Assembly (NCBI GenBank): GCA_902800215.1
Contig: CADCDS010000004.1
Coordinates: forward strand, 36,185-100,184
Reading direction: 5' to 3'
DNA length: 64,000 nucleotides
Source of the DNA: an uncultured Bacteroidales bacterium
Lineage (GTDB): Bacteria > Bacteroidota > Bacteroidia > Bacteroidales > Paludibacteraceae
Shown here: in pieces, positions 1 through 63,512 of the stretch
Position numbering within the stretch: the stretch's first letter is position 1
Layout of the letters: every line of letters starts with the position of its first letter
Translations under genes and position numbers: made by a program
Notes under the pieces: generated by a model
What the model saw: only the letters and a program-made list of their open reading frames with translations
Told to the model about the DNA's origin: nothing
Databases searched by the model: none

Positions 1-2544
1 GCTGCTCGTCAGCACATGAAAGACGGTGTGTCGAATGACTTCCTGGGTCTTTTCTTTGACGAGTATGAGTTAGGCGGTGGCCGTCTGGCTCCGCTGTTCA
101 CCGCTACGATGCGTGACAAGATTGATCCGGACATGGACAACAACGAGGTAAAACGCATCATCCGTAACGAAGTGGATGACGCGGTTGAGAACTCGTTCAA
201 CGTGCTTCGTACCCGTATCGACCGCTTCGGTGTTGTACAGCCGAACATCCAGAAGTTAGGTAACGGTCGTATCCTGATTGAGTTACCGGGTATCAAAGAG
301 CCGAAGCGCGTAGAGAAACTGCTGCAAGGTAGTGCAAACCTGGAGTTCTGGGATACTTACTATAGCCAGGAGCTGTTTAGCGACTTGCAGACTATCGAGA
401 GTAAGTTGGCTGAAGAAGAGCAGACCTTGGTTGGTTTGTTCTCTGACGGCGTTATTGGTAGAGACAAAACGCCGGTTATCGGTGTTGCTCATTATTCGGA
501 CACCGCACGTATCAACGCTATTCTGCAAAGTCACAAAGCAGACCTGCCGAGTTTGGCACATTTCTGCTGGGAAGTAAAAGCGATTGATGACCGCGGCATG
601 TATTTCCGTCTCATCGCGTTGAAACGTGAATCTACTCGTAAGGGTCCGAGATTGGAAGGCGACGTGATCACCGATGCACGTGCTGACTTCCAACAGAACG
701 GTCACGCCGAGGTATTGATGAAGATGAACGCTGCCGGTGCTCGCAAATGGGCTGAGATCACCAAGAAAGCATATGAAGATGGCCAGAAGAGCGTAGCTAT
801 CGTATTGGATGGCTTCGTATATAGTTTCCCGAACGTACAGAGTGAGATCACCGGCGGTAGCAGTTCTATTACCGGTCACTTCACGATGGACGAGGCAAAG
901 GACTTGGCGAACACGCTTAAGTCCGGTAAGATGCCGGCACCTGCCCGTATCATCCAATCGGATGTAGTAGGTCCGTCTCTGGGTCAAGAAGCTATCCGTG
1001 CCGGTTTGCTTTCCTTCCTGCTCGGTTTCATCCTGATTCTGGTTTACATGGTCTTCTACTATGGCTGGATCCCGGGTCTGATTGCAGACGCTGCATTGGT
1101 TTGCAACCTCTTCCTGTTGGTAGGTATCCTGGCTTCCTTCAACGCCGTACTGACCTTGCCGGGTATTGCCGGTATCGTGCTGACGATGGGTATGGCTGTG
1201 GATGCGAACGTGCTTATCTACGAGCGTATCCGTGAGGAGCTCCGTGGCGGCAAGGGTATGCGTAAAGCGGTTGAGGATGGTTTCAAGGGTGCCATCAGCG
1301 CCATCGTGGATGCGAACGTGACTTCGTTCCTGACCGGTGCCATCCTGGCTTACTTCGGTACAGGTCCTATCAAGGGCTTCGCTGTTACCTATATGATCGG
1401 TATCATCTCGTCCTTCTTGACGGCTGTGTTCATTACCCGTCTGTTGCTGGATGACTACTGCAAGCGTGAGAATGCGAAAGAGTTGAGCTTCACCACTCCG
1501 ATGATGAAGAACTTCCTGCAGAATATCCACTTCGACTTCGTGAAAGCACGCAAGTGGGCTTACTGCCTGTCGGGTGCACTTGTGATCTTCGCTATCTTGG
1601 GTCTTGAGCCGCACGTGTTCGGAAAACTGAACTTGGGTATTGATTTCTCCGGTGGTCGTAACTATGTGGTTCGTTTTGACAACGATCAGATTGAGACACA
1701 GAAAGTACGTGAGAACCTGAATGAGGTCTTCAAGGCAGATGCCAAAGTACGTGGCGAAGAGGAGTCCTTCTCGCTGAACGTAATCACCTTTGGTAACAAC
1801 GCCAACCAGGTACGTGTATCGACCAACTACCTCGTTAACGAGGATGATGTAGATGATCTGATTGACCAACTGCTGTATGACGGTTGCAAACCGTTCATGG
1901 CTGAGGAGGTTAGCTTCGATGACTTCAGTTCGTCGGAGAAGAACCCGGAGGTAGGTATCATGCAGAGCCAGAAGGTAGGTCCGTCTATTGCAGACGACAT
2001 CAAGACCAGTGCTATCTGGGCTATCTTTGCTGCGCTGATCGGTATCTTCATCTATATCTTGATCCGTTTCCGCAACTTCGCTTACTCCGTAGGTGCATTG
2101 GCAGCTTTGGCACACGATACCGTGATTATCCTGGGTCTGTATGCGATCCTTTGGAAGATCATGCCGTTCTCCATGGAGATCGACCAGGCATTTATCGCTG
2201 CTATCCTGACGGTTATCGGTTACTCTATCAACGATACCGTGGTCATCTTCGACCGTGTTCGTGAGTACAACAAGTTGTATCCGAAACGTGAGAAGAACGT
2301 GAACATCAACGATGCATTGAACAACACCTTGAGCCGTACGTTCTCGACCTCTATGAGTACGTTCGTGGTATTGTTGGCAATCTTCATCTTCGGTGGTGAG
2401 ACGATCCAAGGTTTCGTCTTCGCTCTCCTCATGGGTGTTATCGTTGGTACCTATTCGTCTCTGTTCATCGCTTCGCCGATTGCATACGATATCCAACGTG
2501 CGATTGCTAAGCGCAAAGAGAAAAAGGAAGCATTGAAGAAATAA
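1..2544 (+). CDS. secDF: SecDF fused protein-export membrane protein (5' partial)
   Basis: Accessory subunit of the Sec translocon that uses the proton gradient to pull exported proteins across the inner membrane. The reading frame is open to the first base, so the true N-terminus lies outside the window; about 847 codons are visible. The SecD half has its periplasmic domain, then a membrane block with the conserved segment GMAVDANVLIYERIREE. The SecF half follows on the same chain, with LGIDFSGG and the matching segment GYSINDTVVIFDRVREY. A SecD-SecF fusion is usual in Bacteroidota. The stop codon lies in the first unit of a heptamer repeat that leads into clpP, so the gene is probably co-transcribed with clpP and clpX. 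Confidence 0.97.
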   Translation, partial: AARQHMKDGVSNDFLGLFFDEYELGGGRLAPLFTATMRDKIDPDMDNNEVKRIIRNEVDDAVENSFNVLRTRIDRFGVVQPNIQKLGNGRILIELPGIKEPKRVEKLLQGSANLEFWDTYYSQELFSDLQTIESKLAEEEQTLVGLFSDGVIGRDKTPVIGVAHYSDTARINAILQSHKADLPSLAHFCWEVKAIDDRGMYFRLIALKRESTRKGPRLEGDVITDARADFQQNGHAEVLMKMNAAGARKWAEITKKAYEDGQKSVAIVLDGFVYSFPNVQSEITGGSSSITGHFTMDEAKDLANTLKSGKMPAPARIIQSDVVGPSLGQEAIRAGLLSFLLGFILILVYMVFYYGWIPGLIADAALVCNLFLLVGILASFNAVLTLPGIAGIVLTMGMAVDANVLIYERIREELRGGKGMRKAVEDGFKGAISAIVDANVTSFLTGAILAYFGTGPIKGFAVTYMIGIISSFLTAVFITRLLLDDYCKRENAKELSFTTPMMKNFLQNIHFDFVKARKWAYCLSGALVIFAILGLEPHVFGKLNLGIDFSGGRNYVVRFDNDQIETQKVRENLNEVFKADAKVRGEEESFSLNVITFGNNANQVRVSTNYLVNEDDVDDLIDQLLYDGCKPFMAEEVSFDDFSSSEKNPEVGIMQSQKVGPSIADDIKTSAIWAIFAALIGIFIYILIRFRNFAYSVGALAALAHDTVIILGLYAILWKIMPFSMEIDQAFIAAILTVIGYSINDTVVIFDRVREYNKLYPKREKNVNINDALNNTLSRTFSTSMSTFVVLLAIFIFGGETIQGFVFALLMGVIVGTYSSLFIASPIAYDIQRAIAKRKEKKEALKK

Positions 2545-2576
2545 TGGCTAAAGGCTAATGGCTAATGGCTAAAGTT
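2542..2576 (+). repeat. 7-bp-period repeat at the secDF/clpP junction
   Basis: Five consecutive heptamers: TAATGGC, TAAAGGC, TAATGGC, TAATGGC, TAAAGTT. The first supplies the secDF stop codon and the last abuts the ATG chosen for clpP at 2577. It is the clearest example of a repeat type found at many junctions in this window. Confidence 0.85.
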
Positions 2577-3260
2577 ATGCAAAACGATTTCTTAAAATAC
2601 GCTGTCTCGCAGGGTTTGAACTCCATGCATGTAGAGAACGTCATGTCTCGCAGCATGGATTCAACCCGTGCAAGCGGTTATATATCGCCCACTATCCTGG
2701 AGGAGCGTCAGTTGAACGTGACGCAGATGGATGTGTTCAGTCGCTTGATGATGGACCGTGTTATTTTCCTCGGTACCGAGGTGAATGATTACACAGCCAA
2801 CGTCATTCAGGCGCAGTTACTCTATCTGGACTCCGTGGATAGCGAACGCGATATCAACCTGTATCTGAATACACCGGGCGGTTCGGTGTATGCCGGTTTG
2901 GGAATATATGACACAATGCAGTTTGTTAAAGCACGTGTAGCTACGATCTGCACCGGTTTGGCTGCTTCGATGGGAGCGGTGTTACTGGTAGCCGGAGAGC
3001 AAGGAATGCGTGCCGCATTACCGCACAGCCGCGTCATGATTCACCAGCCTCTGGGAGGTATTCAAGGTCAGGCCAGCGATATTGAGATCACGGCCAAAGA
3101 GATTCTCAAACTCAAAGACGAACTCTATCAGATCATCTCCGACAAGTCCGGTAAGTCGATGGAACAAATCCGTCAGGATGCGGACCGTGACCACTGGATG
3201 ACCTCGCAGGAAGCGCTGGAATACGGAATGATCGACAAGGTATATACGCATAAAGAATAA
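2577..3260 (+). CDS. clpP: ATP-dependent Clp protease proteolytic subunit
   Basis: Serine protease that forms the tetradecameric barrel degrading proteins delivered by ClpX. The nucleophile is in GLAASMGA (Ser about 131) and the catalytic His in MIHQPLGG (about 156); the Asp is probably in the DRDHW segment near the C-terminus. Start choice: an upstream ATG at 2565 would add MAKV, but that codon lies inside the heptamer repeat. Starting at 2577 gives MQNDFLKYA, which matches the usual Bacteroidales ClpP N-terminus (M-x-x-F-x-K-Y). The length of 227 aa is normal for the family. The stop overlaps the clpX ATG by one base (TAATG), which suggests translational coupling. Confidence 0.96.
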
Positions 3261-6938: not shown

Positions 6939-7799
6939 ATGCAAATTATTACTACCAAGAAGGAATTGCAAGCGATGGTAGAGGCTTGCAAAGCAACAGG
7001 AAAAACCATCGGTTTGGTACCTACTATGGGTGCCTTGCATGAAGGTCACGCCAGTCTGGTGAAACGCGCAGTGAACGAGAACAACGTGTGCTTCGTTTCG
7101 GTTTTTGTCAATCCTACCCAGTTTAACAACAAAGAGGACCTGGCCAAGTACCCTCGTAACATCCAACGCGATGCGGAGTTATTGGAAACCATCGGTGCAG
7201 ACTTTGTCTTCGCACCCACACCGGAAGAGATGTATTCGGAAGAGGAGATGAACACCACCTTCGATTTTGACTTCGCCGGTTTGGACAAAGTGATGGAAGG
7301 CAAGATGCGTCCCGGTCATTTCAACGGTGTTGTGCAGGTGGTAAGTCGTCTCTTCTACCTCGTGCAACCAGACAAGGCTTATTTCGGAGAGAAGGACTTC
7401 CAACAGTTGGCGATCATCCACCATATGGTAGAGCACAGCAGTATGGCCGGCACGTTCGGAAACCTGCAGATCATCGACTGTCCTATCGTACGTGAAGCAT
7501 CCGGTTTGGCACTCAGCAGCCGTAACGAACGGCTTTCCGAAGCGGAGAAAAAGACCGCGTTGGCTATCTCTAAAACGCTTTTTGCTTCGTTGGAATGGGC
7601 AAAAGAGGAAGGTGCGACTGTTGCGGATGTTCAACAGCGTGTCATTGACTCGATCAATGCGATAGAAGGATTGGAAGTGGAGTATTACGAGATCGTGGAT
7701 CAGACCAGTCTGCTACCTACAGACACCTTTGATCACGCCATCGGTTGCGTCACCGTCTATTGCGGACCGGTTCGGCTGATTGATAATATCAAGTACTAA
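6939..7799 (+). CDS. panC: Pantothenate synthetase
   Basis: Joins pantoate and beta-alanine using ATP to make pantothenate, the vitamin precursor of coenzyme A. The 286-aa length is typical. The ATP-binding HIGH-type motif is in PTMGALHEGHASLVKRA. Further family signatures are RPGHFNGVVQVVSRLF, KAYFGEKDFQQL and the C-terminal SSRNERLS loop. The start follows a clear promoter at 6866-6897. The stop begins a heptamer repeat that runs into pdxB, so the two cofactor-biosynthesis genes are likely co-transcribed. Confidence 0.97.
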   Translation: MQIITTKKELQAMVEACKATGKTIGLVPTMGALHEGHASLVKRAVNENNVCFVSVFVNPTQFNNKEDLAKYPRNIQRDAELLETIGADFVFAPTPEEMYSEEEMNTTFDFDFAGLDKVMEGKMRPGHFNGVVQVVSRLFYLVQPDKAYFGEKDFQQLAIIHHMVEHSSMAGTFGNLQIIDCPIVREASGLALSSRNERLSEAEKKTALAISKTLFASLEWAKEEGATVADVQQRVIDSINAIEGLEVEYYEIVDQTSLLPTDTFDHAIGCVTVYCGPVRLIDNIKY

Positions 7800-7824
7800 T
7801 GGCTAAAGGCTAATGGTTATAGTT
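7797..7824 (+). repeat. 7-bp-period repeat at the panC/pdxB junction
   Basis: TAATGGC, TAAAGGC, TAATGGT, TATAGTT. The first unit carries the panC stop and the third contains the pdxB ATG. The units are nearly the same as those at 2542-2576. Confidence 0.8.
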
Positions 7825-8763
7825 GTTGACCAACATATTCCTTTCATCGCTGAGGCTGTTCAACGGGAATGGCCTCAGGTCGATATTTTCCCGTTGAAAC
7901 CGGAAGAAATCGATGCTTCGGCGGTGAAAGATGCCGATGTGCTTATCGTACGGACACGTACGCGTGTGGATGCGTCTTTATTGGAAGGTTCGCAGGTACG
8001 TATGGTGTGTACAGCGACTATCGGATTCGATCATATCGATACGGCTTATTGCGAGACGCACGGTATCCGGTGGATGTCCTGTCCCGGATGCAATGCACAA
8101 GCCGTCTGCGACTATATCGAAGAAGCCTTAGAAGAAATCTCCAATATCCAATCTCCAATCTCCAATCCAATGACCATCGGCGTCATTGGTGTCGGTCATG
8201 TAGGTTCATTGGTTGCCAAGATGGCGGAACGCAAAGGATTGAAAGTGCTGCTCAACGATCCTCCGAAAGGGATGGGTGTCTCGTTAAAAGAGATCGCAGC
8301 GCAATGCGATATCATCACGTTTCACGTTCCGCTGGATCCCACTACTCATCACCTATGCGATGCGGAATTCTTGCTGCAATGCCGACCGGGTGCACTGATT
8401 ATCAATGCGGCACGTGGAGGTGTTGTGGATGAACAAGCGCTGCTGCAAAGCGGTCATCCGTTTGTCATAGATACTTGGGAGAATGAACCGCATATTGATG
8501 CGAATATGCTCCATCATGCCTTGTTGGCATCGATGCATATCGCCGGATATTCGTTGGAAGGGAAACGCAATGCTTCGCAGATGTGCCTTGATGCGGTAGC
8601 AGAGGAGTTTAACTTGCCGAAGATCAATCTGCAATCACCAAATACCAATGACCGATTATCAATCGGTGATTCATCACCGGGTTGGTTATCCCGCATTTTC
8701 GAACAACTCAAAGCCCATCCGGAACAATTTGAGCAGTTACGAAAAAACTACCCTCTAAGATAA
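7813..8763 (+). CDS. pdxB: 4-phosphoerythronate dehydrogenase
   Basis: NAD-dependent D-2-hydroxyacid dehydrogenase family enzyme that oxidises 4-phosphoerythronate in pyridoxal-phosphate synthesis. It opens MVIVVDQHIPFIAEAV, close to PdxB. The Rossmann motif is GVIGVGHVGS and the catalytic region includes INAARGGVVDE and a late His in SMHIAGYSLEGK. The 316 aa are slightly short for a PdxB with its C-terminal dimerisation domain. Two stretches are built of heptamer repeats: the linker before the NAD domain (8136-8163) and a segment near residues 272-287 (8626-8674). Neither shifts the frame. The ATG itself lies in the junction repeat after panC. Confidence 0.88.
   Translation: MVIVVDQHIPFIAEAVQREWPQVDIFPLKPEEIDASAVKDADVLIVRTRTRVDASLLEGSQVRMVCTATIGFDHIDTAYCETHGIRWMSCPGCNAQAVCDYIEEALEEISNIQSPISNPMTIGVIGVGHVGSLVAKMAERKGLKVLLNDPPKGMGVSLKEIAAQCDIITFHVPLDPTTHHLCDAEFLLQCRPGALIINAARGGVVDEQALLQSGHPFVIDTWENEPHIDANMLHHALLASMHIAGYSLEGKRNASQMCLDAVAEEFNLPKINLQSPNTNDRLSIGDSSPGWLSRIFEQLKAHPEQFEQLRKNYPLR
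8136..8163 (+). repeat. In-frame 7-bp-period repeat inside pdxB (first)
   Basis: AATCTCC, AATATCC, AATCTCC, AATCTCC, followed by a partial unit. It encodes ISNIQSPISNP, exactly between the substrate-binding half and the NAD-binding Rossmann domain, where PdxB normally has a linker. Confidence 0.8.
8626..8674 (+). repeat. In-frame degenerate 7-bp-period repeat inside pdxB (second)
   Basis: AATCTGC, AATCACC, AAATACC, AATGACC, GATTATC, AATCGGT, GATTCAT. It encodes a polar Ser/Asn-rich stretch before the last helix. Units are more diverged than in the first pdxB repeat. Confidence 0.6.
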
Positions 8764-13746: not shown

Positions 13747-13785
13747 ATGGCTAAAGGTTAAAGGTTATAGGTTAAAGGTAAAAGT
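13746..13785 (+). repeat. 7-bp-period repeat at the SRPBCC/psd junction
   Basis: AATGGCT, AAAGGTT, AAAGGTT, ATAGGTT, AAAGGTA, then AAAGT directly before the psd ATG. It starts on the last base of the upstream stop. The same unit set occurs before gcvH on the other strand (52846-52880). Confidence 0.85.
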
Positions 13786-14469
13786 ATGAAAAGACCGAGA
13801 ATACATAGAGAAGGCAGGAATCCGATCATCGGATTGGTGTTGCTTTTGTTTATTATTAACGTCGTGGTTTATATGTCCGTCTCATCGCACTGGGCATTAG
13901 CCGTTTCGTTAGCGATCACTTCGATTTTATTGGTGTTTGTCACCTATTTCTTCCGCAATCCTGTGCGCGTGTTGGAGATCGATGATCCTAATTTCGTCAT
14001 CGCGCCTGCTGATGGTCGTGTGGTAGTAATCGAACCGACGGAGGAGAACGAGTATTTCCATGAGAAGAAACTGCAGGTTTCCATCTTCATGTCGCCGTTT
14101 AACGTACACGCCAACTGGTATCCGATCGAGGGAACGATCTTAGAGTCGTCGCACCAGAAAGGCCGACACAAAGGAGCATGGCTGCCGAAATCCAGTACCG
14201 AGAACGAACGTTCGCTGGTGGTCATTGAAACGCCTTCGAAGATTCAGATTGCCGTTCGGCAAGTAGCCGGCGCCATGGCACGACGGATTGTGACCTATGC
14301 CAAGGTGGGCAAGCAATGTCACCGGAACACACACCTCGGATTTATCAAACTCGGTTCACGTGTCGATATGTACCTGCCGCTGAACACGGAGATGTTCGTC
14401 GATGTAGGTGACTCCGTTCGTGGAAACGAGACGATCATTGCTCGTCTCTCCGAAGAAAATGAAAATTGA
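13786..14469 (+). CDS. psd: Phosphatidylserine decarboxylase proenzyme
   Basis: Converts phosphatidylserine to phosphatidylethanolamine at the inner membrane. This is the short form (227 aa). Two membrane segments near the N-terminus (about 15-50) precede the catalytic domain with FFRNPVR, IAPADGRVVVIE and the FMSPFNVHANWYP motif. The self-cleavage site LGS in GFIKLGSRVD (about 188-190) would yield a beta chain and a pyruvoyl alpha chain. The stop lies within a heptamer run that leads to deoC. Confidence 0.95.
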   Translation: MKRPRIHREGRNPIIGLVLLLFIINVVVYMSVSSHWALAVSLAITSILLVFVTYFFRNPVRVLEIDDPNFVIAPADGRVVVIEPTEENEYFHEKKLQVSIFMSPFNVHANWYPIEGTILESSHQKGRHKGAWLPKSSTENERSLVVIETPSKIQIAVRQVAGAMARRIVTYAKVGKQCHRNTHLGFIKLGSRVDMYLPLNTEMFVDVGDSVRGNETIIARLSEENEN

Positions 14470-14482
14470 AAATTGAAGATTT
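14455..14482 (+). repeat. 7-bp-period repeat across the psd stop
   Basis: GAAAATG, AAAATTG, AAAATTG, AAGATTT. It covers the last psd codons, the stop and part of the gap to deoC. Confidence 0.7.
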
Positions 14483-15376: not shown

Positions 15377-17685
15377 TGAATAAGATTCTATCCAAGAAAT
15401 TCTTTTCGGACAATGTAGCGGAGCTGATCGTTGAAGCTCCGCTCATTGCGCGTAGCCGTCGTGCCGGTCACTTCGTGATTATCCGTGTGGACGCTAACTC
15501 CGAACGTATCCCGTTGACCATCGCAGGGGCGGATATCGAAAAAGGTACGATCACGTTGGTGGTACAACAAGTAGGTGCCTCGACGCATAAACTGTTGGCG
15601 ATGAACCCGGGTGATTGTCTGCATGACATCGTGGGACCGCTCGGTCGCGCTACGCGTATCGAGAACTATGGTACCGTGGTATGTGCCTGCGGTGGTGTCG
15701 GTGCAGCGCCGATGCTGCCGATTGCCGAGGCACTCAAGAAAGCCGGCAACAAAGTCATCACAGTGCTGGCAGCTCGTAACAAAGACCTGCTCATCCTTCA
15801 GGATGAACTCGCCCAATGGTCCGACGAAGTGATCATCATGACCGATGACGGTTCGGCGGGTCAACAAGGTGTTGTCACCGTAGGTGTCGAGCAAGTGATC
15901 AACCGCGAGAAGGTGGACAAATGTATCACCATCGGTCCGGCGATCATGATGAAGTTCGTCGCTCTGACTACTGCCAAATACAATATCCCTACCGAGGCTT
16001 CGCTGAACACCATCATGGTGGACGGTACGGGTATGTGCGGTGCGTGTCGTGTAACGGTTCACGGTAAGACCAAATTCGTCTGCGTGGATGGTCCTGAGTT
16101 TGATGCCCATGGTGTTGACTGGAACGAAATGCTCAGCCGCATGAAAGCGTTCAAAGCGGAAGAAGCAGAAGCCCTGCGGGCTTATAATGAGCGCTCGCAA
16201 AGCGAGCTCAATGATGAAATGAGCGCGGCCAAGCCGCTCAATGATGTGCAAGTAGGCACCGTTGAGCCTTTTGAAGGCAAACCGAAAGACCGTGTAGCGA
16301 TACCTCGTGTGCAGATGCCGGAACTGCGTCCGGAAGTGCGCGTAAAGAGCCTGCACGAGGAAGTGAACCAAGGTCTGACTTTCGAACAAGCTATTACCGA
16401 GAGCCATCGTTGTCTGAATTGTAAGAACCCGACGTGTGTGCAAGGCTGTCCGGTGAACATCAACATTCCGGGATTCATCAAGACCCTGGAAACCGGCGAT
16501 ATCCTCGGAGCAGCTGCGGTCATCAAAGAGAGTTCGTCTCTACCGGCCGTCTGCGGTCGTGTATGTCCGCAAGAGAAGCAATGCGAGAGTCAGTGTATCC
16601 ATCTGAAGATGGGTCATCCGGCTGTTGCTATCGGTTACTTGGAGCGTTTCTGCGCGGATTATGCAAATGCGCAGCCTCAAATCTCAAATGTCAAATCTCA
16701 AATCTCAAATACCGCAATGAAAATTGCGGTGGTCGGTTCCGGTCCTGCGGGATTGACTTTTGCCGGTGATGCCGCCAAATACGGTTATGAAGTGCATGTT
16801 TTCGAAGCACTCCATGAGATAGGTGGTGTACTCAAATACGGTATTCCGGAGTTCCGTCTGCCGAATCGCATCGTGGATATCGAGATTGACGGTCTGCGTG
16901 CCTTGGGTGTACAGTTCCACACCGACACGATCGTTGGTAAGACGATTACGATTAAAGAACTGGAGGAACAAGGCTTCAAGGGTATCTTTGTCGGTTCCGG
17001 TGCCGGTTTACCGCGATTCATGAACATACCGGGAGAGAACCTCAACGGCGTCATGTCGTCGAATGAGTACCTGACCCGCGTCAACCTCATGGACGCTTCG
17101 AACCCTGCGACCGACACCCCGCTGCTCTACGGAAAGAACGTAGCGATCATCGGAGGTGGTAACACAGCCATGGATGCGGTACGTACCGCCAAACGCTTAG
17201 GCGCAGAACGTGCGATGATCATCTATCGCCGTTCAGAAGAGGAGATGCCGGCACGTGTGGAAGAGGTGCATCACGCCAAACAGGAAGGTATTGAGTTCAT
17301 GACGCTCCATAATCCGATTGAGTACCATGCAGACGAGAACGGCCGTGTTTGCGAAGCGGTGCTGCAAGTGATGGAACTCGGTGAACCGGATGAGTCGGGT
17401 CGCCGTAGTCCGGTGCCCGTAGAAGGTAAGACCGTGACTATCCCTGTGGATCTCGTCATCGTAGCAGTCGGTGTTTCGCCCAACCCGTTGATCCCATCGT
17501 CCGTCGAAGGCCTTGAGATAAGCAAGAAAGGTACGATTGTGGTGAACGAGGGTATGCAGTCTAACCTCCCGATGATCTTCGCCGGAGGCGATATCGTTCG
17601 TGGAGGTGCTACCGTCATTCTCGCTATGTCAGACGGCCGCAAAGCCGCAGCAGCAATGCATGAATACTTAAAGGCGAAAGGTTAA
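15376..17685 (+). CDS. Fused ferredoxin:NADP+ oxidoreductase/glutamate synthase small subunit-like flavoprotein (NfnAB or SudBA type)
   Basis: 769-aa fusion. Residues 1 to about 280 form an FAD/NAD-binding module with a [2Fe-2S] motif around GTGMCGACRV and a later Cys (dihydroorotate dehydrogenase B electron-transfer type). Residues from about 340 form a GltD-like module: CLNCKNPTCVQGCP and CGRVCPQEKQCESQC for Fe-S clusters, then Rossmann motifs GSGPAGL and GGGNTAMD. Separate proteins of this kind make up NfnAB transhydrogenase and sulfide dehydrogenase; the fusion occurs widely in Bacteroidota. I infer electron transfer between NAD(P)H and ferredoxin. A heptamer repeat (16680-16707) forms the linker before the second FAD domain, and another covers the stop. 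Confidence 0.85.
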   Translation: MNKILSKKFFSDNVAELIVEAPLIARSRRAGHFVIIRVDANSERIPLTIAGADIEKGTITLVVQQVGASTHKLLAMNPGDCLHDIVGPLGRATRIENYGTVVCACGGVGAAPMLPIAEALKKAGNKVITVLAARNKDLLILQDELAQWSDEVIIMTDDGSAGQQGVVTVGVEQVINREKVDKCITIGPAIMMKFVALTTAKYNIPTEASLNTIMVDGTGMCGACRVTVHGKTKFVCVDGPEFDAHGVDWNEMLSRMKAFKAEEAEALRAYNERSQSELNDEMSAAKPLNDVQVGTVEPFEGKPKDRVAIPRVQMPELRPEVRVKSLHEEVNQGLTFEQAITESHRCLNCKNPTCVQGCPVNINIPGFIKTLETGDILGAAAVIKESSSLPAVCGRVCPQEKQCESQCIHLKMGHPAVAIGYLERFCADYANAQPQISNVKSQISNTAMKIAVVGSGPAGLTFAGDAAKYGYEVHVFEALHEIGGVLKYGIPEFRLPNRIVDIEIDGLRALGVQFHTDTIVGKTITIKELEEQGFKGIFVGSGAGLPRFMNIPGENLNGVMSSNEYLTRVNLMDASNPATDTPLLYGKNVAIIGGGNTAMDAVRTAKRLGAERAMIIYRRSEEEMPARVEEVHHAKQEGIEFMTLHNPIEYHADENGRVCEAVLQVMELGEPDESGRRSPVPVEGKTVTIPVDLVIVAVGVSPNPLIPSSVEGLEISKKGTIVVNEGMQSNLPMIFAGGDIVRGGATVILAMSDGRKAAAAMHEYLKAKG
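16680..16707 (+). repeat. In-frame 7-bp-period repeat in the flavoprotein linker
   Basis: AATCTCA, AATGTCA, AATCTCA, AATCTCA. It encodes QISNVKSQISNT directly before MKIAVVGSGPAGL, at the border between the Fe-S domain and the FAD domain. Confidence 0.8.
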
Positions 17686-17697
17686 AGGCGAAAGGCG
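17670..17697 (+). repeat. 7-bp-period repeat across the flavoprotein stop
   Basis: AAAGGCG, AAAGGTT, AAAGGCG, AAAGGCG. It encodes the last residues (KAKG), includes the stop, and ends one base before the dacB ATG. Confidence 0.8.
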
Positions 17698-17698
17698 A

Positions 17699-19075
17699 AT
17701 GTTTTTAGCTGCCGTTATATTATCCTCGATTCTGACGTCTCATCCGATTACGGAGCAGGCGAATATGTCTGTGCTGGTTCAAAACCTGAACACGGGTGAA
17801 GTCATCGATAGTCAACGGGAGAACCATGTGGTTCCTCCGGCATCGGTGATGAAACTGCTGACGACAGGTGCGGCACTGGAGATGTATGGCGCGGATTATC
17901 AGTTTCCTACCACTATCGAATATAACGGTGTGATCCGTCATGACACTTTGTTTGGTAACTTATATGTCCGTGGAGGATGCGATCCTTCTTTGGGCAATAA
18001 GGGTCAGACCGGTTTCCTGTACCGTTGGGCCAAAGAGGTGAAAAATGCCGGTATTAAGGTGATTGAAGGCAGTGTGGTGGCAGACATGACGATGCTGGAT
18101 GCGGAAGCACAAAATCCGGCATGGTTATGTGAAGATGCAGGAAACTACTATGCACCCGGTATCTTTGCACTCAATTATTACGGGAACACGATGAACATCG
18201 TGCTCAAGAGCGGTGAACCGGGAACGGTGGCAACGATTATGAAAACCGAACCGAACGTAGAGGATCTGGTGTTTATCAACCGAATCCGTTGTGACCGGAT
18301 TCAATACGACGGTGCGTTTGTGAGTGGTATCCCCTACAGCCGGGAACGGTACTTGAACGGTGCGGTACCGTCTAACTTGGGTACGTTTGGTGTCAAAGGG
18401 GACTTACCGAATCCGGGATTGCTGTTAGTGCGCCATTTCACGAAGGTGCTGAATGAGTCCGGCATTTCCGTCCAACGGGAACCGACATATATCGCCGATT
18501 ATAATCCGATGACACCGCCACGTATCGCTATCTACACGCATTACTCGCCGAAGTTATCGGAATTGATCACCGAGACCAATGTCAACAGTAACAACCTGTA
18601 CGCGGAAAGTATCTTCCGTTTCTTGGGCACACGGTACATGTTACCCGGCACGATTCATAACAGTCAAGAGGTGGTGAAAGAGTTTTGGAAAAACAAAAAA
18701 GTGAGTGTCCAAAACGCCATCATCAAAGACGGTTGTGGTCTGGCGCCGCAAGATGCAATAAGTGCCAAGGCTTTAGTGGAATTACTAACCTACATGGCGC
18801 ACAGCAAGAACGCCGAAGTATGGAAGGCATCGTTGCCGATCAGCGGTCAGACCGGTACGCTAAAGAGTCTGTGTGTCGGTACGGCATTGGAAGGAAAGAT
18901 ACATGCCAAAAGCGGAACGATTGCCGGAACAAAGAACTTCGCCGGATATATCGATATGCCGAACGGAGATACCTGGGTGTTCGCTATCCTGATCAATTCT
19001 GCACCCGGAAAGGCGAAGAATATACAAACGGTGATACAAGAATACCTGCTAGATGTATATAAAAAGCACCAATAG
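17699..19075 (+). CDS. dacB: D-alanyl-D-alanine carboxypeptidase/endopeptidase (PBP4 type)
   Basis: Serine peptidase of family S13 that trims peptidoglycan side chains or cuts cross-links in the periplasm. A short signal sequence (MFLAAVILSSILTS) is present. The active Ser is in SVMK (about 50), the second motif is SNN in VNSNNLYAES, and the third is KSG in HAKSGTIAGTK (about 403). The 458-aa length fits the class with its extra inserted domains. The ATG comes just after a heptamer repeat. The 3' end overlaps birA by 23 nt. Confidence 0.92.
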   Translation: MFLAAVILSSILTSHPITEQANMSVLVQNLNTGEVIDSQRENHVVPPASVMKLLTTGAALEMYGADYQFPTTIEYNGVIRHDTLFGNLYVRGGCDPSLGNKGQTGFLYRWAKEVKNAGIKVIEGSVVADMTMLDAEAQNPAWLCEDAGNYYAPGIFALNYYGNTMNIVLKSGEPGTVATIMKTEPNVEDLVFINRIRCDRIQYDGAFVSGIPYSRERYLNGAVPSNLGTFGVKGDLPNPGLLLVRHFTKVLNESGISVQREPTYIADYNPMTPPRIAIYTHYSPKLSELITETNVNSNNLYAESIFRFLGTRYMLPGTIHNSQEVVKEFWKNKKVSVQNAIIKDGCGLAPQDAISAKALVELLTYMAHSKNAEVWKASLPISGQTGTLKSLCVGTALEGKIHAKSGTIAGTKNFAGYIDMPNGDTWVFAILINSAPGKAKNIQTVIQEYLLDVYKKHQ

Positions 19076-22371: not shown

Positions 22372-23313
22372 TTATTGCATTTTGTTATATAAAGTGGCCA
22401 AATACTCCTGTTCCGGTTGTCCGGGAGTCGGAATTAACTCCGCTTTATCCAATATTCCGAGTGCGTTAAAATCCATGATAGTAGAGTATCCGGAACGGGC
22501 GATGATATGTTTTGCGCCCAAGAGTGCTGAAGTCAATTCCGAATCCGTCATATACGGCAGGATGGTGATATTTCCCCGTTTAATACGGGTGTTGGGGCGA
22601 TGCATAAGTCCTTGTACAATCAGTACCTGTTCTTCTGTTCCGGAATACCGTGCGATAATCTCTTTCTCCAATAAGGTGCGATGGGGTTCCAGGCCGGAGA
22701 GAACAGCGACGATATCAAATGGTGATTGGTGATTGGTGATTGGTGATTGTTTCTGAAAGCGGCTCAAAGGTCCGATATAATCCACTTTAGCAGTGGTGTG
22801 ACTTAATTGTCCGGCGAGACTCTTTTGCGGATCGGCATAATCGGGTACCCATACCTTATTATATCGCATGTATATGCGTGCGTGTATGCGTGAAGCAATA
22901 GGCTCTGCCCATTTCCAGCCACGAGGAAGCATAATGTGGAGTTGATGGGTGATATAGATGGATTCCGTTTTTTTGCTATATAATCCAAAGCGGTTATCGG
23001 AGATGACGCGATCGATGGATTCTTCGTTAAGAAGGGCTTTAAGCATTAGATGATCTTTCATCGACCACTTGATGAGTTTAGGCATTGCACGCAGGATAGC
23101 GAATACTTGCCGTGTACCTTTGCTATACTGGAGGTTAAGCGGTGCCAGATAGGTGTATCGCAGTTTCGGGAAATGTTTCCGAAGAAGCGTCAGACTCTCA
23201 CCATCTCCTCCGAGTATCACTTCATGTCCCTCATCCAACAGACGCTGAACGAGCGGTACACAACGACTCGCATGACCGAGTCCCCAGTTCAAAGGTGCAA
23301 CAAGAATCTTCAT
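22372..23313 (-). CDS. GT28/MurG-like glycosyltransferase
   Basis: 313-aa GT-B enzyme opening MKILVAPLNWGLGHASRCVP, the glycine-rich acceptor loop of the MurG/UDP-glucosyltransferase group. The C-terminal domain has the nucleotide-sugar region IARSGYSTIMDFNALG. The sugar and acceptor are unknown. The interdomain linker is made of four perfect heptamer units (22721-22748), encoding QSPITNHQSP. The C-terminus stops soon after QEYLATLYNKMQ, a little earlier than many relatives. The ATG overlaps the upstream radical SAM stop as ATGA. It lies directly upstream of the tRNA-Glu promoter. Confidence 0.85.
   Translation of the reverse strand: MKILVAPLNWGLGHASRCVPLVQRLLDEGHEVILGGDGESLTLLRKHFPKLRYTYLAPLNLQYSKGTRQVFAILRAMPKLIKWSMKDHLMLKALLNEESIDRVISDNRFGLYSKKTESIYITHQLHIMLPRGWKWAEPIASRIHARIYMRYNKVWVPDYADPQKSLAGQLSHTTAKVDYIGPLSRFQKQSPITNHQSPFDIVAVLSGLEPHRTLLEKEIIARYSGTEEQVLIVQGLMHRPNTRIKRGNITILPYMTDSELTSALLGAKHIIARSGYSTIMDFNALGILDKAELIPTPGQPEQEYLATLYNKMQ
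22721..22748 (-). repeat. In-frame 7-bp-period repeat in the GT28-like gene
   Basis: Four identical units, GGTGATT on the plus strand (AATCACC on the coding strand). They sit between the two Rossmann-like domains. It is the least diverged repeat of the set, suggesting recent expansion. Confidence 0.85.
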
Positions 23314-26703: not shown

Positions 26704-26738
26704 ATTTGTCATTTGTCTTTATTCCTTATTCATTTGTC
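26704..26738 (-). repeat. 7-bp-period repeat between the OstA-like and barrel genes
   Basis: On the coding strand: GACAAAT, GAATAAG, GAATAAA, GACAAAT, GACAAAT, then ATG. It contains the stop of the OstA-like gene and abuts the start of the barrel gene. Confidence 0.85.
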
Positions 26739-48300: not shown

Positions 48301-51300
48301 TGGGCGATGATCCAGTTAGTCTGAACGGCCGTCTCATTATTCAGATGACTTTCGGTCAGCGAATGGTTGGTTACCCACAGGATCCACTGGTCACCGGCGG
48401 TCAGACCACTGCTGACACGCACGCTGCGAGTCGTCAGTTCGGAGATGCTGGTCTTAGGCATCGGACAAGCCATGGAGATGATCGATACATCATCCAGATA
48501 TACCCAGTCGCTCTTACCCTTACGACCACGCCAAGCGATGTACTTAGCCGTTGGCGGAATGAGCGCTTTGTAGTCACTGAGGTCAAACGATCTCGTTTGC
48601 AAAGCAGCAGAAGAACCTTCACCCTTCACCGAGTCAAGCGCTACGAAGGTATTCAAGTCATCCGGATCGGTCATCACGCCGAGAACACAGTACTCGCTGG
48701 ATGTCGAAGCACCGGACGAGAAGGTTACCATCACCTTGTACAAGGAGTCAATGAGGATCTCCGGCGAAGCCGCCCAAGCGGTGTTGGAAGACTGGTAGAG
48801 ATAAAGGATCTGAGATCCGCCATGAGAAGTGACATACGGAAGTCTGCCATAGGAAGAACTGTTTCCTACGGTCCAGCAACCCGGTACTGCCCCCTCCGAA
48901 TAGGACTCGAAGGTCTCTTTGTTGGCCTTGGCCGGATCCAGGAGTTCACAGGTCGTTTTAGCCGACGTACCGGCCCAGATGCTATCGGCGCACAAGGTCT
49001 GCACGTAGATATAATACATCTTCGACGATTCTAAATCCTCGATATGAATATTCTTACCGGTGATAGTGGTATCCAGCACGTCATACGAAGAATTATACGT
49101 ACCGTTCTTCACAGCTGAAACAGCAGCATTCTGGTTCAGCACCTTCACTCTCCACTGGTCATTGTTGGAAACACCGCTCCAGGTCAAATCGATCGAATGC
49201 GGCGCCAGATTGATCTGCTTGAAGTCATACGCATCGATACAGGACGGGTCTTTCAACTCCACATTATCGATGAGCACGTCGCTGTTCATCTGCAGCGTAC
49301 CGATACCGGAGGTGATGGCGAGGTTACCATACGCCAACTCGTAGTTCGACAAGATGACGCGTACTTTCTTAACATCCGAACCGGTAACCTTCACCGTGTC
49401 AAACGGCACAAAAGTAGTCTGGTTACTGATATCCTCCATCGTTCCGATATACACTACACCGCTGGCAGAAGAGGACGTGGAATAGTTACGTACATCAAAG
49501 GTCAGCAACTGATCCGTGAGCGTACCTTCCACCGTCGGCAGGATAGCCATGGAACGGTGGGTAGTTCCGGACGAATAGAGTTCCAGCCACTTGTTATTGG
49601 AAGTGGAATAGATCTTCGGATAATCGACACCGACGTAGTCTTTGAGTTGCCAGCAACCGGCATCGGTGCTTCCTGAACTATACGCTTCAAAGGTCTCCTT
49701 CCACGGGAACACTTTCTCTTCACACGGTGTGCTGAAAGCCACTTCGGTCCACCAGTCCTGATCACAGGTAGCACGGACATACATGTAGTAATTGGTATGC
49801 TCGGCCAGACCGCCGATACCAAACTGAGGTTGCGACTGAGAGTCATCCGGCCAGGTCAGGGTATCACCCAGCACAAAGCCCGGCATCGTCGTCATCTGCT
49901 CAAAGCTCTTTTGTACACGGTCCGACTCTTTCCACGCTACACGAGAGATGAATAACTCCCACTCATCGGACAATTCCGACGACTCCCATGTAACCGTGAT
50001 CGAATCGGGTTCGATAGACAACAACTCGATATTCGTCGGCGGTACACATTCAGACAATTCCTCCACCGTCAGATTATCGATGTAGTTATTGGTGAACTTA
50101 CTCATGTTCATCACATCGGCCCAAACGATAGCAATCACGCCTTCCGGACCGCTGTAGTTCTCGAAATTAGCGTAACAACGGGTGTAACCGGTGGTGTTCA
50201 ATTGGAAATCCGCCACCGGAATGAAGGTGTTTATATCCATCGGGTTGGACATCACACCCACTGTCGCATGCGCCTGGTCATAAGTCTGGTAACCGCTCAA
50301 GTAGAACTTGACCTGGGTGTTACTCAGATCCTCCACCATCGGAAGGGTGATCCAACCGTCCTTACCCCCCATCATACTCATCGACAGACAGCCGGAACCT
50401 ACATAACTCTTTGCCGAGTTATTCTCGATAGCAGGGTAGTTACCGCTGTTACCGAAGACACCTATACCGGTTGCATAGGACTTGGTACCGATCTGATAAG
50501 TAGGCGTGTTGAGCGCTTCAAAGTCATACGAATAAGGGATCGCACGTTGTGCTGCTACCGTCACAAACGGATAGCGGTATGACCATTCCTGACCTTCCGC
50601 CTGCACATAGACATAATACGGTCTGTTCCAACTGTGATCTGCCTCCAAGGCCTCACATACGTAACTGTTTCCGCTCACCGTAGTCTGATCCACGATAGCC
50701 GAAGCAGCCGGGTTATTGGGGTTCACCTCCGCATTGGTAACCAACACGTTATAAGAAGCCGCATTGCCTTTCCACTCAATGGTAGCATAGGTATCACGCG
50801 GATTAACGGAGATCTCCGTCACCTTATTGACCTCTTTGCGATACTCCACCGTGAGGTTATCGATATAGAACAGGTTATCCCGGTCAAAATCGCTGACAAA
50901 GGCCAAGAAGACACCGTTACCCTGGTAACTGCCGAGGTCCACGATATTCTCCACGAACGACATGTTTCCCCAAACGGTCACCGTATCAACCGGCGTGAAG
51001 GTGGTGATATCGTCCGGATCATCCATCACACCCACCATCAGGCTGCGACCGAACTTACGGCCGGTGTTGGTATAGACGGTGCTCCAGAAATGCACCTGGC
51101 ATTGATTGATCTTGAAATCATCATTCGTAGTATCCGCCAATGCCGGTGTAGCTACATAAGCATAGCGGTCTGCCGGGATAACTTCCGTAAGCGACGTAAA
51201 GTCTCCACCGGAGAAGATCAACGCAGCCGTAGTATCGGGTGAATAGTTGGCACGCGCCTTACCGCTGGTGGTTGAGTTAACGAACGGATTCGTCTTACCG

Positions 51301-52837: not shown

Positions 52838-52845
52838 ATCTGTAA

Positions 52846-52880
52846 ACTTTTAACTTTAACCTTTAACCTATAACCTTTCG
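52846..52880 (-). repeat. 7-bp-period repeat before gcvH
   Basis: On the plus strand: ACTTTTA, ACTTTAA, CCTTTAA, CCTATAA, CCTTTCG. In the gcvH direction the units read AAAGG-type, as before psd at 13746-13785. Confidence 0.8.
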
Positions 52881-61032: not shown

Positions 61033-63306
61033 ATGAGAAAAAAATTATTTACATTTCTTCTCGCCCTCACAGCCAGCATAGGGATGATGTGGGCAGAGAC
61101 GGTAGTGGTTATCAACAAAAGTGAATTCACATCTTCCGGAGTTACGAAGGAGGGAGTGACTTTGGCTCTGTCGAACGGAAGTATGACTTCTAGCGACATA
61201 GTGGCAATGAATGGTTCTTTCGAATTCTCAACATCGCTTGGGAAATTTACCGGTATTACCATCGTCACAGACGCTAATATTATGGAAATTTATGAAGGCG
61301 CATTTACCAGTGCCGGTTGGCCTACAGGTGATAACTTGGGAACATCAGCAGTTTGGACAGGTGAGTCCGAAACAGTTCTTATCAGTTGTATGGTTGCCGG
61401 TATGGATAATATAACAATTACCTGCACAATTGAACCGACTCCGGCTTCTTCGGTGACGGCAGCAAGATTTGTTTATAACTACGACTGTCAGCGTAATCCG
61501 TCTTTCCCTAAAGTAAATAATCCATGCAATCTTTCCGGATTCAAAGATCCATACGAAGGATATAAAGGATACAGAAATGGAAATGTTGCTGTCGGTCCTT
61601 GGAAATTAGAGTTCGTAGCATACTATACTCCTTCCAATAACTATGATTGCGCTTCACAGGTCAATTCTGCAGCCTATCAGTACTACTCGGATTTGAGTTA
61701 CGAAGAAAGGGAGGCGAAAAAATTGGAGATGCCTATTTTCCGTCTCTGGCAATATAATTTGACAGCAAGAGAGTTCCAGCCCGCAGCGTATGGTCTCGTT
61801 TGTGCATATGCAGGAGAAGCCAATGCACAGGATCATGCAGCTTTGTTTGTCTCTTCCAATGGTATGGGTTGCTTCCTTTCGGGACATCAACACACGTCCA
61901 GTTTCGCCCTTACTTGCGAAAATGACCTGACTACAGGTTTGGCAGCCTTGGTGGATGCTGCTTCTGCTCCTAGCGATCCGTATTATGATGTTGTATGGCC
62001 GGTTATCGTATCCATTGATGCTATCGGATCTGTAGAACTGTCTGAGCATTGCAAATATTATATTGAAGGTTCGCGCGCTGCGTACGACGCTTTGACTGAT
62101 GAGCAGAAAGCGCAAGTCACCAATTATAGTACGCTGACCAATGCTGAAACACAATGGGCAGCTTTGGTCGCTGCAGCACAGCCTTATGCTGACGCAGTAA
62201 TCGATTTAATTAACGCGATCCCGAATCCGGTTGTTTATACACAGGATTGCCAGGATAAGATTGATGCAGCGCAGGATGCATATGATGCATTGACCGATGG
62301 TCAGAAAATATTGGTGTCCAATTATGAGACGCTGAAGAATGCTCCGTCCGATTTTATCAATGCCGCTCCGTATGTGCATATTCTCTTTAAAGCAAATGGC
62401 AATGAAAAGAAGGTTGAGAATGTTACACTCCCGCGTGAGTTCACAGAAGAAGAGATGAAAACAATGCTTAAAGAACTATACGGTGTTGAAGGAGATTACG
62501 ATATGTATGCTTATTCTAATTCTAATGCCGATGCTGTGAATATTATTCCCTACGAAAAGTGGACAATTTCTCCTTTTATGGGAAAGGTTAATGTTAATGG
62601 TAATATGGATAAGTATGACCCAGAAACAGGTTACCAATGGATTGATTTCAGCCTCGAAATCTCTTTAGAGCTTCCGCCATTTGGTTCGGCTCCAGCTTCG
62701 GCGGATGAGCAAGTACCGACGAATGCAGATCCGGAGAACCCGAGCTATCACTACTCGACCTTCTTCCACAGCACGCAGAACTACAAGCTCACCAACGATG
62801 GTACGCAAGCCTTTATCGCTGACCTGAGCGGCAGCGACCTCGTGCTGACGAAGATCGCAGAGGGCACACAAGTCATTCCGGCTAATACGGCAGTCATCTT
62901 CCGTAAATCCGGTTCGGCAGATCCTGTTGTCCTCACCCCGACGGAAGAGAACGGCGTAAGTGTTAATCCGGACGACAACAGCCTCAAAGGTGTGGATGCA
63001 GTTACTACGCTGGAGAGCCTGAGCATCGCACAAGAGAACTGCTACGTACTGAGTGGTACGAACGAGTATGGTGTCGGTTTCTATCAGATCAACAGCACTT
63101 CCCTCAAAGCACATAAGGCTTATGTCATCTACAGCGGTAACGCTGCTCCGCGTCGTATGCGCTTCGTCTTCAACCAAGAGCAGGTGGTAACCGGCATTGA
63201 TAACGCAAACGCAGATACCAAGGCCGAGAAACGCATCGAGAACGGACAACTCATCATCATCAAGAATGGCGTACGCTACAATGTACAAGGACAGTTGATC
63301 AAATAA
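61033..63306 (+). CDS. Exported surface protein with FIVAR-like helical repeats and the shared C-terminal motif
   Basis: 757 aa with signal peptide MRKKLFTFLLALTASIGMMWA. The N-terminal third is beta-rich and unrecognised. Around residues 335-450 two copies of a three-helix unit occur, each with AYDALTDxQK followed by V-x-NY-x-TL (YDALTDEQKAQVTNYSTL and YDALTDGQKILVSNYETL), as in FIVAR-type bacterial surface repeats. A further beta-rich region lies before the end. The last residues include KRIENGQLIIIKNGVRYN and GQLIK, the same pattern as the 3321-aa protein. A heptamer repeat after the stop leads into a 41-aa microprotein gene. The role is probably adhesive or structural. Confidence 0.82.
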   Translation: MRKKLFTFLLALTASIGMMWAETVVVINKSEFTSSGVTKEGVTLALSNGSMTSSDIVAMNGSFEFSTSLGKFTGITIVTDANIMEIYEGAFTSAGWPTGDNLGTSAVWTGESETVLISCMVAGMDNITITCTIEPTPASSVTAARFVYNYDCQRNPSFPKVNNPCNLSGFKDPYEGYKGYRNGNVAVGPWKLEFVAYYTPSNNYDCASQVNSAAYQYYSDLSYEEREAKKLEMPIFRLWQYNLTAREFQPAAYGLVCAYAGEANAQDHAALFVSSNGMGCFLSGHQHTSSFALTCENDLTTGLAALVDAASAPSDPYYDVVWPVIVSIDAIGSVELSEHCKYYIEGSRAAYDALTDEQKAQVTNYSTLTNAETQWAALVAAAQPYADAVIDLINAIPNPVVYTQDCQDKIDAAQDAYDALTDGQKILVSNYETLKNAPSDFINAAPYVHILFKANGNEKKVENVTLPREFTEEEMKTMLKELYGVEGDYDMYAYSNSNADAVNIIPYEKWTISPFMGKVNVNGNMDKYDPETGYQWIDFSLEISLELPPFGSAPASADEQVPTNADPENPSYHYSTFFHSTQNYKLTNDGTQAFIADLSGSDLVLTKIAEGTQVIPANTAVIFRKSGSADPVVLTPTEENGVSVNPDDNSLKGVDAVTTLESLSIAQENCYVLSGTNEYGVGFYQINSTSLKAHKAYVIYSGNAAPRRMRFVFNQEQVVTGIDNANADTKAEKRIENGQLIIIKNGVRYNVQGQLIK

Positions 63307-63346
63307 ATTTGATATTTGATATTTGAAATTTAAAATTTGAGATTTT
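63307..63346 (+). repeat. 7-bp-period repeat between the 757-aa gene and the microprotein
   Basis: ATTTGAT, ATTTGAT, ATTTGAA, ATTTAAA, ATTTGAG, ATTTT, then ATG. It begins directly after the upstream stop and ends directly before the next start. Confidence 0.85.
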
Positions 63347-63472
63347 ATGAAAAAGAACTATATCAATCCCTCTGTGCAGGTAGCACAATTCGCCCCGATG
63401 TCTCTCATGCAGGCTGCCAGCCCGGCGGCTACCAACATGAATATCGTTGAGATCCCCGGCGAACAGTGGTAA
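63347..63472 (+). CDS. 41-aa microprotein of the MKKxYxxP type
   Basis: Starts MKKNYINPSVQVAQFAPMSL and ends MNIVEIPGEQW. Short proteins opening MKK-x-Y-x-x-P with a hydrophobic V-x-V core and a Met-x-Ala-Ser segment are frequent in Bacteroidales genomes and often follow surface-protein genes. Their function is unknown to me. The start follows a heptamer repeat directly and a terminator lies 40 nt after the stop, so it is transcribed with the 757-aa gene. Confidence 0.7.
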   Translation: MKKNYINPSVQVAQFAPMSLMQAASPAATNMNIVEIPGEQW

Positions 63473-63477
63473 ATGAC

Positions 63478-63512
63478 GTTGGCTATTAGCTGTTAGCTAT
63501 TGGCTGTTAGCA
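63478..63512 (+). repeat. 7-bp-period repeat after the microprotein
   Basis: GTTGGCT, ATTAGCT, GTTAGCT, ATTGGCT, GTTAGCA. Unlike the others it sits between a stop and a terminator rather than before a start codon. Confidence 0.8.

What the first reader, a model, noticed from the sequence alone, without database searches (positions are those of the whole stretch)
2542..63512. Heptamer repeats of changing sequence at eight gene junctions
At 2542, 7797, 13746, 14455, 17670, 26704, 52846 and 63307 (and after the stop at 63478) short runs keep an exact 7-bp period. The unit differs by locus (TAATGGC, AAAGGTT, AAAATTG, GACAAAT, ATTTGAT, GCTGTTA types). Most begin at or inside one gene's stop codon and end at or within a base or two of the next start codon. 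A constant period with changing sequence is not what an ordinary dispersed repeat family gives. It suggests a local amplifying process, or a spacing function between stop and start such as translational coupling. I know of no named element that fits.
Basis: partly seen in the sequence, partly recalled or inferred. Interest (0 to 1): 0.82.

Follow-up and report, generated by a model that had tools for sequence, protein, structure and literature searches.

The report
Fast-changing seven-base repeat arrays
Short repeats with a fixed seven-base step, but changing letters, fill gaps between genes and loops inside proteins of one uncultured bacterial genus, and at the same spot a close relative often carries a completely different repeat.

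Summary
In 860 kb of the host assembly (uncultured Bacteroidales) lag-7 tandem runs number 132, against 0 in one Markov simulation and 0-26 at other lags from 2 to 13. The window alone has 8, simulated 0. Three of the nine listed loci (7797, 26704, 63478) are weak on their own.

The junction-only picture is incomplete. 73 of 132 arrays lie inside ORFs, three of them in the window, several in interdomain linkers of housekeeping proteins.

Against the closest congener found (about 95% DNA identity), 12 of 35 mapped arrays are replaced in place by an unrelated heptamer array; arrays appear at 7 of 142 array-free junctions and 6 of 839 random sites. Coding length changes keep frame in 10 of 11. 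Other genera of the order have none in 356 kb sampled.

A spacing function is not supported. Best reading: heptameric simple-sequence arrays, changed by 7-nt slippage and copied between loci, turning over at tolerant sites. They resemble known heptamer repeats (Xanthomonas, Nostoc, Beggiatoaceae) but invade coding linkers. New variant of a known kind.

The parts
2542..2572 (+). Junction array, unit TAATGGC/TAAAGGC, from the stop of the SecDF gene to the ClpP-like start
   Evidence: TRF; lag-7 score 16; G139 ortholog differs by one base; Pfam
7796..7813 (+). Weak junction array between the pantoate ligase gene and the next gene
   Evidence: lag-7 score 7, not significant alone; Pfam
8136..8171 (+). 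Coding array, unit AATCTCC, just before the NAD-binding domain of a 2-hydroxyacid dehydrogenase (peptide SNIQSPISN); not present in congener G138
13752..13784 (+). Junction array, unit AAAGGTT, before the phosphatidylserine decarboxylase gene
   Evidence: 4 of 18 congener junctions carry a lag-7 run of score 8 or more
14455..14481 (+). Junction array, unit AAAATTG, overlapping the end of the decarboxylase gene
   Evidence: 6 of 19 congener junctions carry a lag-7 run
16664..16710 (+). Coding array, unit CTCAAAT, in the linker between Fer4_20 and Pyr_redox_2 domains of a 769-aa flavoprotein
   Evidence: 11 of 30 genomes (G000 included) have a lag-7 array here, with differing units
17668..17699 (+). 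Junction array, unit AAAGGCG/AAAGGTT, overlapping the C-terminus of the 769-aa gene and ending at the next ATG
   Evidence: of 18 congener junctions 5 carry a lag-7 run and 7 overlap instead
22720..22749 (-). Coding array, unit TGGTGAT (perfect), inside the minus-strand gene 22372-23313 (peptide QSPITNHQSP)
26704..26717 (-). Weak junction array (ATTTGTC) upstream of a minus-strand gene; in G139 the site holds a TACTTTC array
   Evidence: lag-7 score 7
52845..52878 (-). Junction array, unit AAAGGTT on the coding strand
63305..63345 (+). Junction array, unit ATTTGAT; the same junction in relatives holds TAAATGG, AATTGAT, TGAAAAT, TAATGTG or no array
63478..63511 (+). Degenerate array, unit GTTAGCT/ATTAGCT, after a short reading frame ending near 63472
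   Evidence: TRF score 40; ungapped lag-7 score 6

Best explanation
These are heptameric simple-sequence arrays that turn over quickly at tolerated positions: junctions inside operons, interdomain linkers, probable signal peptides and C-terminal tails. Shown by sequence: they change locally in steps of seven bases, and a border unit can become the new repeat unit; imperfect arrays are shared between unrelated loci of one genome; and at the same site a close relative often carries an unrelated unit. Inferred: slipped-strand synthesis during replication or repair makes the steps, and recombination or template switching between loci does the copying. Selection then keeps only what the site tolerates: in-frame and stop-free inside proteins, almost anything at intra-operon junctions. 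No spacing or coupling function is needed.
For: Period 7 dominates in G000, G139 and 20 congener stretches (132, 95 and 43 arrays), with 0 in 356 kb of other genera. 12 of 35 mapped arrays are replaced by an unrelated heptamer array with 88-99% flank identity, against any lag-7 array at 7 of 142 array-free junctions and 6 of 839 random sites. Whole-unit changes: of four junction arrays with similar unit and changed length, three differ by 28, 28 and 7 nt, one by 27. Border unit taken over: (AAAAATG)4 in G000 against (AAAAATG)3(AAAGGTG)4 in G139. Local seed: AAGAGAT before an ATG in G000 against an AAGACAT-type array before the same ATG in G139. Mismatch grows with distance inside arrays of 32 nt or more: 8.1, 10.7, 12.2 and 13.9% at lags 7, 14, 21 and 28 (finding arrays by lag 7 favours a low first value). 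Copying: imperfect 21-mers shared between arrays, 60 against null mean 13 (max 27) in G000 and 38 against 5 (max 16) in G139. 53 of 73 coding arrays are stop-free in all three sense frames, against 11 of 54 junction arrays (one frame is free by definition in an ORF). 10 of 11 coding length changes are multiples of 3.
Against: No enzyme or donor structure was found: no PF00078 reverse transcriptase hit in G000, two partial Y1-transposase hits just over the cut-off, MutS present. Sharing of imperfect 24- and 28-mers in G000 (19 and 4) does not exceed the largest null (19 and 11), and the strong excess in G139 at 28 (18 against 0) rests on about four locus pairs, one of them most of it. Three features are not predicted by simple slippage: array lengths peak at about 32 nt with few above 35, junction arrays are G-rich on the sense strand in 41 of 54, and distinct units share more positional information than shuffled ones. 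The excess at array sites could also reflect scarcity of permissive sites. 14 of the 35 mapped arrays are identical, substituted or similar in G139, so turnover is not universal.
Confidence: 0.62

Rival explanations
1. The arrays are functional spacers or low-structure leaders between stop and start codons, tuning translational coupling or initiation.
For: Strong enrichment between co-directional genes, ends within a few bases of stops and starts, and a sense-strand G over C bias at junctions, 41 of 54.
Against: 73 of 132 arrays lie inside ORFs. At the junction of window genes 19053-19733 and 19730-20863, 13 of 18 congeners overlap by 1-4 nt and 5 have gaps of 31-85 nt, three of these with a lag-7 run, so tight coupling is broken rather than tuned.
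Confidence: 0.12
2. The arrays are mobile micro-elements moved as cassettes by a dedicated system (transposase, reverse transcriptase or integrase).
For: Same units at many loci of one genome (AATCTCC in 23 of 132 arrays; random expectation for the top unit 2.7, at most 5), length mode near 32 nt, a 41-nt irregular composite at two junctions of G126, restriction to one genus in the sample. One empty-site pair (C4:30313) shows a possible 7-8-nt near-duplication beside the insert (my reading, not tested).
Against: No PF00078 hit in G000. Y1_Tnp hits are strong (up to 153 bits) in outgroups and at most 35 bits in this genus; G000 has two of 24 bits covering 50 of 121 positions. No constant flank was seen in the pairs aligned. 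Integrases were not searched.
Confidence: 0.16
3. Replacement is import of diverged alleles by homologous recombination, the arrays being old polymorphisms.
For: Linker alleles look mosaic between species: G085 joins a 5' part like G006 to a 3' part like G000. Some arrays are near-identical between congeners of about 89% protein identity (G000 and G138).
Against: In several pairs flanks of 95-99% identity run to within a few bases of the replaced block; in others one flank is also diverged. Recombination moves alleles but does not create the diversity or the 7-nt period.
Confidence: 0.1

Closest known systems
GGGAATC heptamer repeats of Xanthomonas and GGGGA(C/T)T of Nostoc (PMC4692102; passages seen)
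   Same: Period 7, fixed and variable columns in the unit, four units most common, mostly intergenic between aligned genes, length and sequence variation between two close relatives.
   Different: That study follows one unit family, 89-93% intergenic in Xanthomonas. Here 56 unit classes in 132 arrays, 73 of 132 in ORFs; 0 of 270 arrays hold two adjacent copies of those units.
TAACTGA repeats of Beggiatoaceae, some Cyanobacteria and Bacteroidetes, Paludibacter among them (PMC4679880; abstract, introduction and section 10 read)
   Same: Heptamers, many just upstream of start codons; indels in 7-nt steps between Cyanothece strains; mixed heptamers in Microcystis and Elizabethkingia; in Gramella and Aequorivita, arrays where a close relative has none.
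   Different: One unit followed; TAACTGA pairs occur in 0 of 270 arrays here. Swap for an unrelated array at the same site is not described in what I read.
P6b loop of the Nostoc tRNA-Leu intron (PMC4476775; passages seen)
   Same: One site holding one of two different degenerate heptamer classes, with repeated replacement of one by the other.
   Different: A single locus with a structured RNA stem; here many loci. Two adjacent copies of the class I motif TDNGATT do occur in 20 of 270 arrays here, class II in 0 (no chance level computed).
Long simple sequence repeats of prokaryotes (Mrazek 2007; paper not held; known through)
   Same: Heptamers as the most abundant class in most genomes studied; polymerase-slippage explanation.
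   Different: Could not be read, so whether it treats same-site replacement is unknown to me.
Rickettsia palindromic elements (recalled; one review seen only in a search listing)
   Same: Short repeats tolerated in frame inside ORFs (recalled).
   Different: Longer palindromes (recalled); here short tandem arrays of many units.

Membership tests
Heptameric long simple-sequence repeats | Tandem unit of 7 nt repeated beyond chance | tested here: met
   132 arrays against 0 in one simulation; window 8 against 0 in 30 shuffles
Heptameric long simple-sequence repeats | Copy number varies between relatives in whole units | tested here: met
   Differences of 28, 28 and 7 nt at three of four junctions of similar unit; the fourth differs by 27
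Heptameric long simple-sequence repeats | Fast slippage within a population | not testable with these tools
   One assembly per species is held
Xanthomonas/Nostoc G-rich heptamers | Unit GGGAATC or GGGGA(C/T)T | tested here: not met
   0 of 270 arrays (132, 95 and 43) hold two adjacent copies
TAACTGA repeats | Unit TAACTGA | tested here: not met
   0 of 270 arrays hold two adjacent copies
REP/RAYT elements | Y1 (TnpA-REP) transposase in the genome | tested here: inconclusive
   G000 has two partial hits of 24 bits (cut-off 23) in 378- and 399-aa frames, covering positions 37-88 of 121
Arrays made by a reverse transcriptase | RVT_1 reverse transcriptase in the genome | tested here: not met
   0 hits in G000, which is 85% complete; 14 of 61 genus genomes positive
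Phase-variable contingency loci | Unit change switches a gene off by frameshift | tested here: inconclusive
   10 of 11 coding length differences between species keep frame; within-strain variation not testable

The most novel reading that the evidence does not exclude
A lineage-specific, letter-blind process locked to a 7-nt register repeatedly erases and rewrites short arrays of about 32 nt at the same genomic sites and copies arrays between sites, so that gene junctions and protein linkers of one genus are continuously rewritten while the period is kept.
Probability: 0.22. Interest if true: 0.86.

Novelty: new variant of a known kind. Interest (0 to 1): 0.6.

Why it matters
Why heptamers dominate bacterial simple-sequence repeats is an open question. 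A genus with more than 150 species held here, arrays in 14 of 20 sampled stretches, and same-site replacement at about 5% divergence is a natural system for finding the cause. It also shows housekeeping proteins (an MtaB, a PcrA-like helicase, a flavoprotein) changing peptide linkers by taking up repeats of the same kind as lie between genes.

Tried and rejected
Spacing or coupling function: rejected as the general explanation because arrays lie in ORFs and orthologous junctions vary from overlap to tens of bases. Dispersed repeat of one family: rejected, 56 unit classes in 132 arrays. Pure independent local seeding: not enough, because one unit recurs in 23 arrays where the top count expected is 2.7 and irregular composites are shared between loci. 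Mismatch-repair loss: MutS_V hits in 40 of 41 genomes, G000 included. Reverse transcriptase; Y1 transposase: inconclusive for G000. Species-specific unit bursts are suggestive only: AATCTCC 23 of 132 against 8 of 95, p 0.08; AACCCGT 12 against 2, p 0.05; ACGGCTG 0 against 8, p 0.0008, but at least three of those 8 sit in one locus (L191) and the tests are uncorrected. Literature: three term sets joining heptamer or 7-bp repeats with Bacteroidetes or Bacteroidales found no paper in the open-licence library, yet PMC4679880, found, does report TAACTGA repeats in five Bacteroidetes including Paludibacter. Mrazek 2007 is not held. Gene calls outside the window come from my own crude ORF caller.
Full report
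WHAT WAS CHECKED. The window lies in contig C4 of a 1.96 Mb, 30-contig assembly (85% complete). Named relatives are uncultured Bacteroidales MAGs, one titled Paludibacteraceae from goat reticulum. Tandem Repeats Finder confirms the 7-base arrays at most of the listed places. Six of nine reach a lag-7 score of 9 or more; 7797, 26704 and 63478 are at a level that chance gives a few times per 64 kb. I also took 40 further stretches, in all 860,184 b. There lag 7 gives 132 arrays, lag 8 gives 26, lag 14 (harmonic) 92, and lags 2-6, 9-13 and 15 at most 13; one order-2 Markov simulation gave none.

WHERE THEY ARE. With my own ORF caller (668 genes; starts refined), 73 of 132 arrays lie inside ORFs, 54 between co-directional genes (some overlapping gene ends), 2 divergent, 2 convergent and 1 with one neighbour only. 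Per base, co-directional intergenic DNA is about ten times richer than coding or divergent DNA (54 in 51 kb; 73 in about 765 kb; 2 in 22 kb). Coding arrays encode seven-residue peptide repeats such as SNLQSPI and PVTRNPS. I scanned 10 array-bearing proteins outside the window with Pfam and NCBIfam (they hold 16 of the 73 coding arrays, placed). Some arrays fall between domains: LigA array at residues 401-411 between OB fold (332-401) and zinc finger (418-443); MtaB array at 184-194 between UPF0004 (75-169) and radical SAM (220-399); PcrA-like helicase array at 692-701 between UvrD_C (to 635) and tudor (709). Others lie inside a domain match: DapA 182-188, RibD 64-74 and 178-187, PcrA-like 75-83 and 351-360, two of three in a RluA-family protein. 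So 'linker' holds for part of them; the rest may be surface loops, which I did not test. In the window the 769-aa flavoprotein (NfnAB-like by domain order, a recalled label) has its array between Fer4_20 (327-433) and Pyr_redox_2 (448-754).

SAME SITE, DIFFERENT LETTERS. In that linker 11 of 30 genomes (G000 included) carry a lag-7 array, with units such as CTCAAAT, AGCCATC, AATCGTC, ATCGTAC, AGCCAAA and CAAATCA; the others have 11-mers, palindromic bits or plain linkers. At the 63307 junction 7 of 11 testable sequences (window included) carry arrays of five unit types and four have none; three further relatives end before the junction. I followed eight junctions of the window through 20 congener stretches; lag-7 runs of score 8 or more occur in 4 of 18, 6 of 19, 1 of 17, 5 of 18, 1 of 18, 3 of 18, 0 of 6 and 0 of 6, in map order from 13746 with the two minus-strand junctions last; in most of the other cases the genes overlap or have short gaps.

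CLOSE COMPARISON. G139 is the closest congener found in the 150 searched (96-98% protein identity; 94.6% DNA identity over 85 kb of first alignments). Of 131 G000 arrays with flanks, 35 could be mapped in the fetched part of G139: 12 replaced by an unrelated heptamer array, 6 by other sequence (some visibly degenerate heptamers), 3 absent, 5 with a similar unit but changed length or phase, 6 with substitutions only, 3 identical. In reverse, 35 of 94: 9 replaced, 7 other, 7 absent, 7 substitutions only, 3 identical, 2 similar. Sites were placed by 150-b flanks with 88% identity or more, extrapolated over unaligned ends, so a few placements near diverged flanks are uncertain. Random 32-mers stay at least 85% identical in 96% of 426 mapped cases; array-free junctions of 10-100 nt in 77% of 43, with 16% below 60% identity, so junctions are variable even without arrays. 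A lag-7 array appears in G139 at 7 of 142 array-free co-directional junctions and 6 of 839 random array-free sites, against 12 of 35 replaced; separately, non-coding array sites 4 of 16 (p 0.015) and coding 8 of 19. The G139 stretches were fetched by contig number, except C29, which holds the SecDF gene, and the locus L062 with the 769-aa gene, which was included because of its array site.

HOW IT CHANGES. Direct views of 7-nt dynamics: a 28-base (four-unit) difference in one array (C7/L133); a border unit that became the main new unit (C5/L186); an array built on the seven bases before a start codon (L193). Inside arrays mismatch rises with distance, as expected if units are copied from neighbours. 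Against purely local origin: the top unit recurs in 23 of 132 arrays where random units give 2.7; imperfect composites are shared between loci above a position-randomised null, clearly at 21 bases, less so at longer lengths in G000; 53 identical bases occur at two G139 loci (L133 and L186); 41 bases are identical at two junctions of G126. So both local stepping and copying between loci take place; what does the copying is unknown. Length keeps frame in 10 of 11 coding changes; the exception lies near a protein N-terminus where the start may differ.

TAXON RANGE. Congeners: 43 arrays in 398 kb from 20 species, with none in 6 of the 20 stretches. Other genera of the order, including one of the same family: 0 in 356 kb from 17 genomes, one stretch of 1,258 b having no G or C and probably masked. 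The commonest unit as a 19-base pattern is found in 10 of 61 genomes of the genus and 2 of 80 of the order, G000 counted in both; the second in 11 of 61.

WHAT IS UNEXPLAINED. Array length peaks near 32 nt. Junction arrays are G-rich on the sense strand in 41 of 54. Sixty-eight distinct units share more positional information than shuffled ones, possibly because they descend from few founders. Lag 8 is a smaller second class with its own units.

VERDICT. Ordinary in kind, a heptameric simple-sequence repeat system like those of Xanthomonas, Nostoc and Beggiatoaceae, but unusual in the share inside protein-coding genes and in same-site replacement by unrelated units. The mechanism is inferred, not shown.

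Noticed in passing
G000 contigs, e.g. C1:5292-5327, C1:187225-187257, C3:37062-37108: A second class of tandem arrays with period 8 (units like GTTAAACT, CGTCATGA, AAACTAGG), 26 in 860 kb, with little overlap with the heptamers.
   Followed up: partly
L145 (G126), junctions matching window 13746 and 15376: Two insertions of about 148 nt at different junctions share 41 identical bases and have TTGACGA arms followed by inverted TCGTCAA arms, like a fold-back element.
   Followed up: partly
G000 C3:48870, C7:30578, C6:16764: Hydrophobic N-terminal segments, probably signal peptides, are encoded by heptamer arrays.
   Followed up: no
window 16186-16246: A 30-base tandem pair rich in GCGAGC/GCTCGC in the same flavoprotein gene; several congeners split into two matches around residues 272-303, suggesting a second variable linker.
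   Followed up: no
linkers and junctions of G006, G102, G032; G000 C7:30486-30533: An 11-base family (GGTCTAACAGC, AGACCGCTGCG) occupies the same kinds of sites as the heptamers.
   Followed up: no
window 63733-63812: A 33-base unit repeated 2.4 times at 97% matches.
   Followed up: no
window 42303-52268: One minus-strand reading frame of 3321 aa.
   Followed up: no
L207 (G000 C19:62377-62465): The longest heptamer array seen here, 89 nt of mostly ATTGGAR units, just after a stop codon and before a terminator-like hairpin.
   Followed up: no
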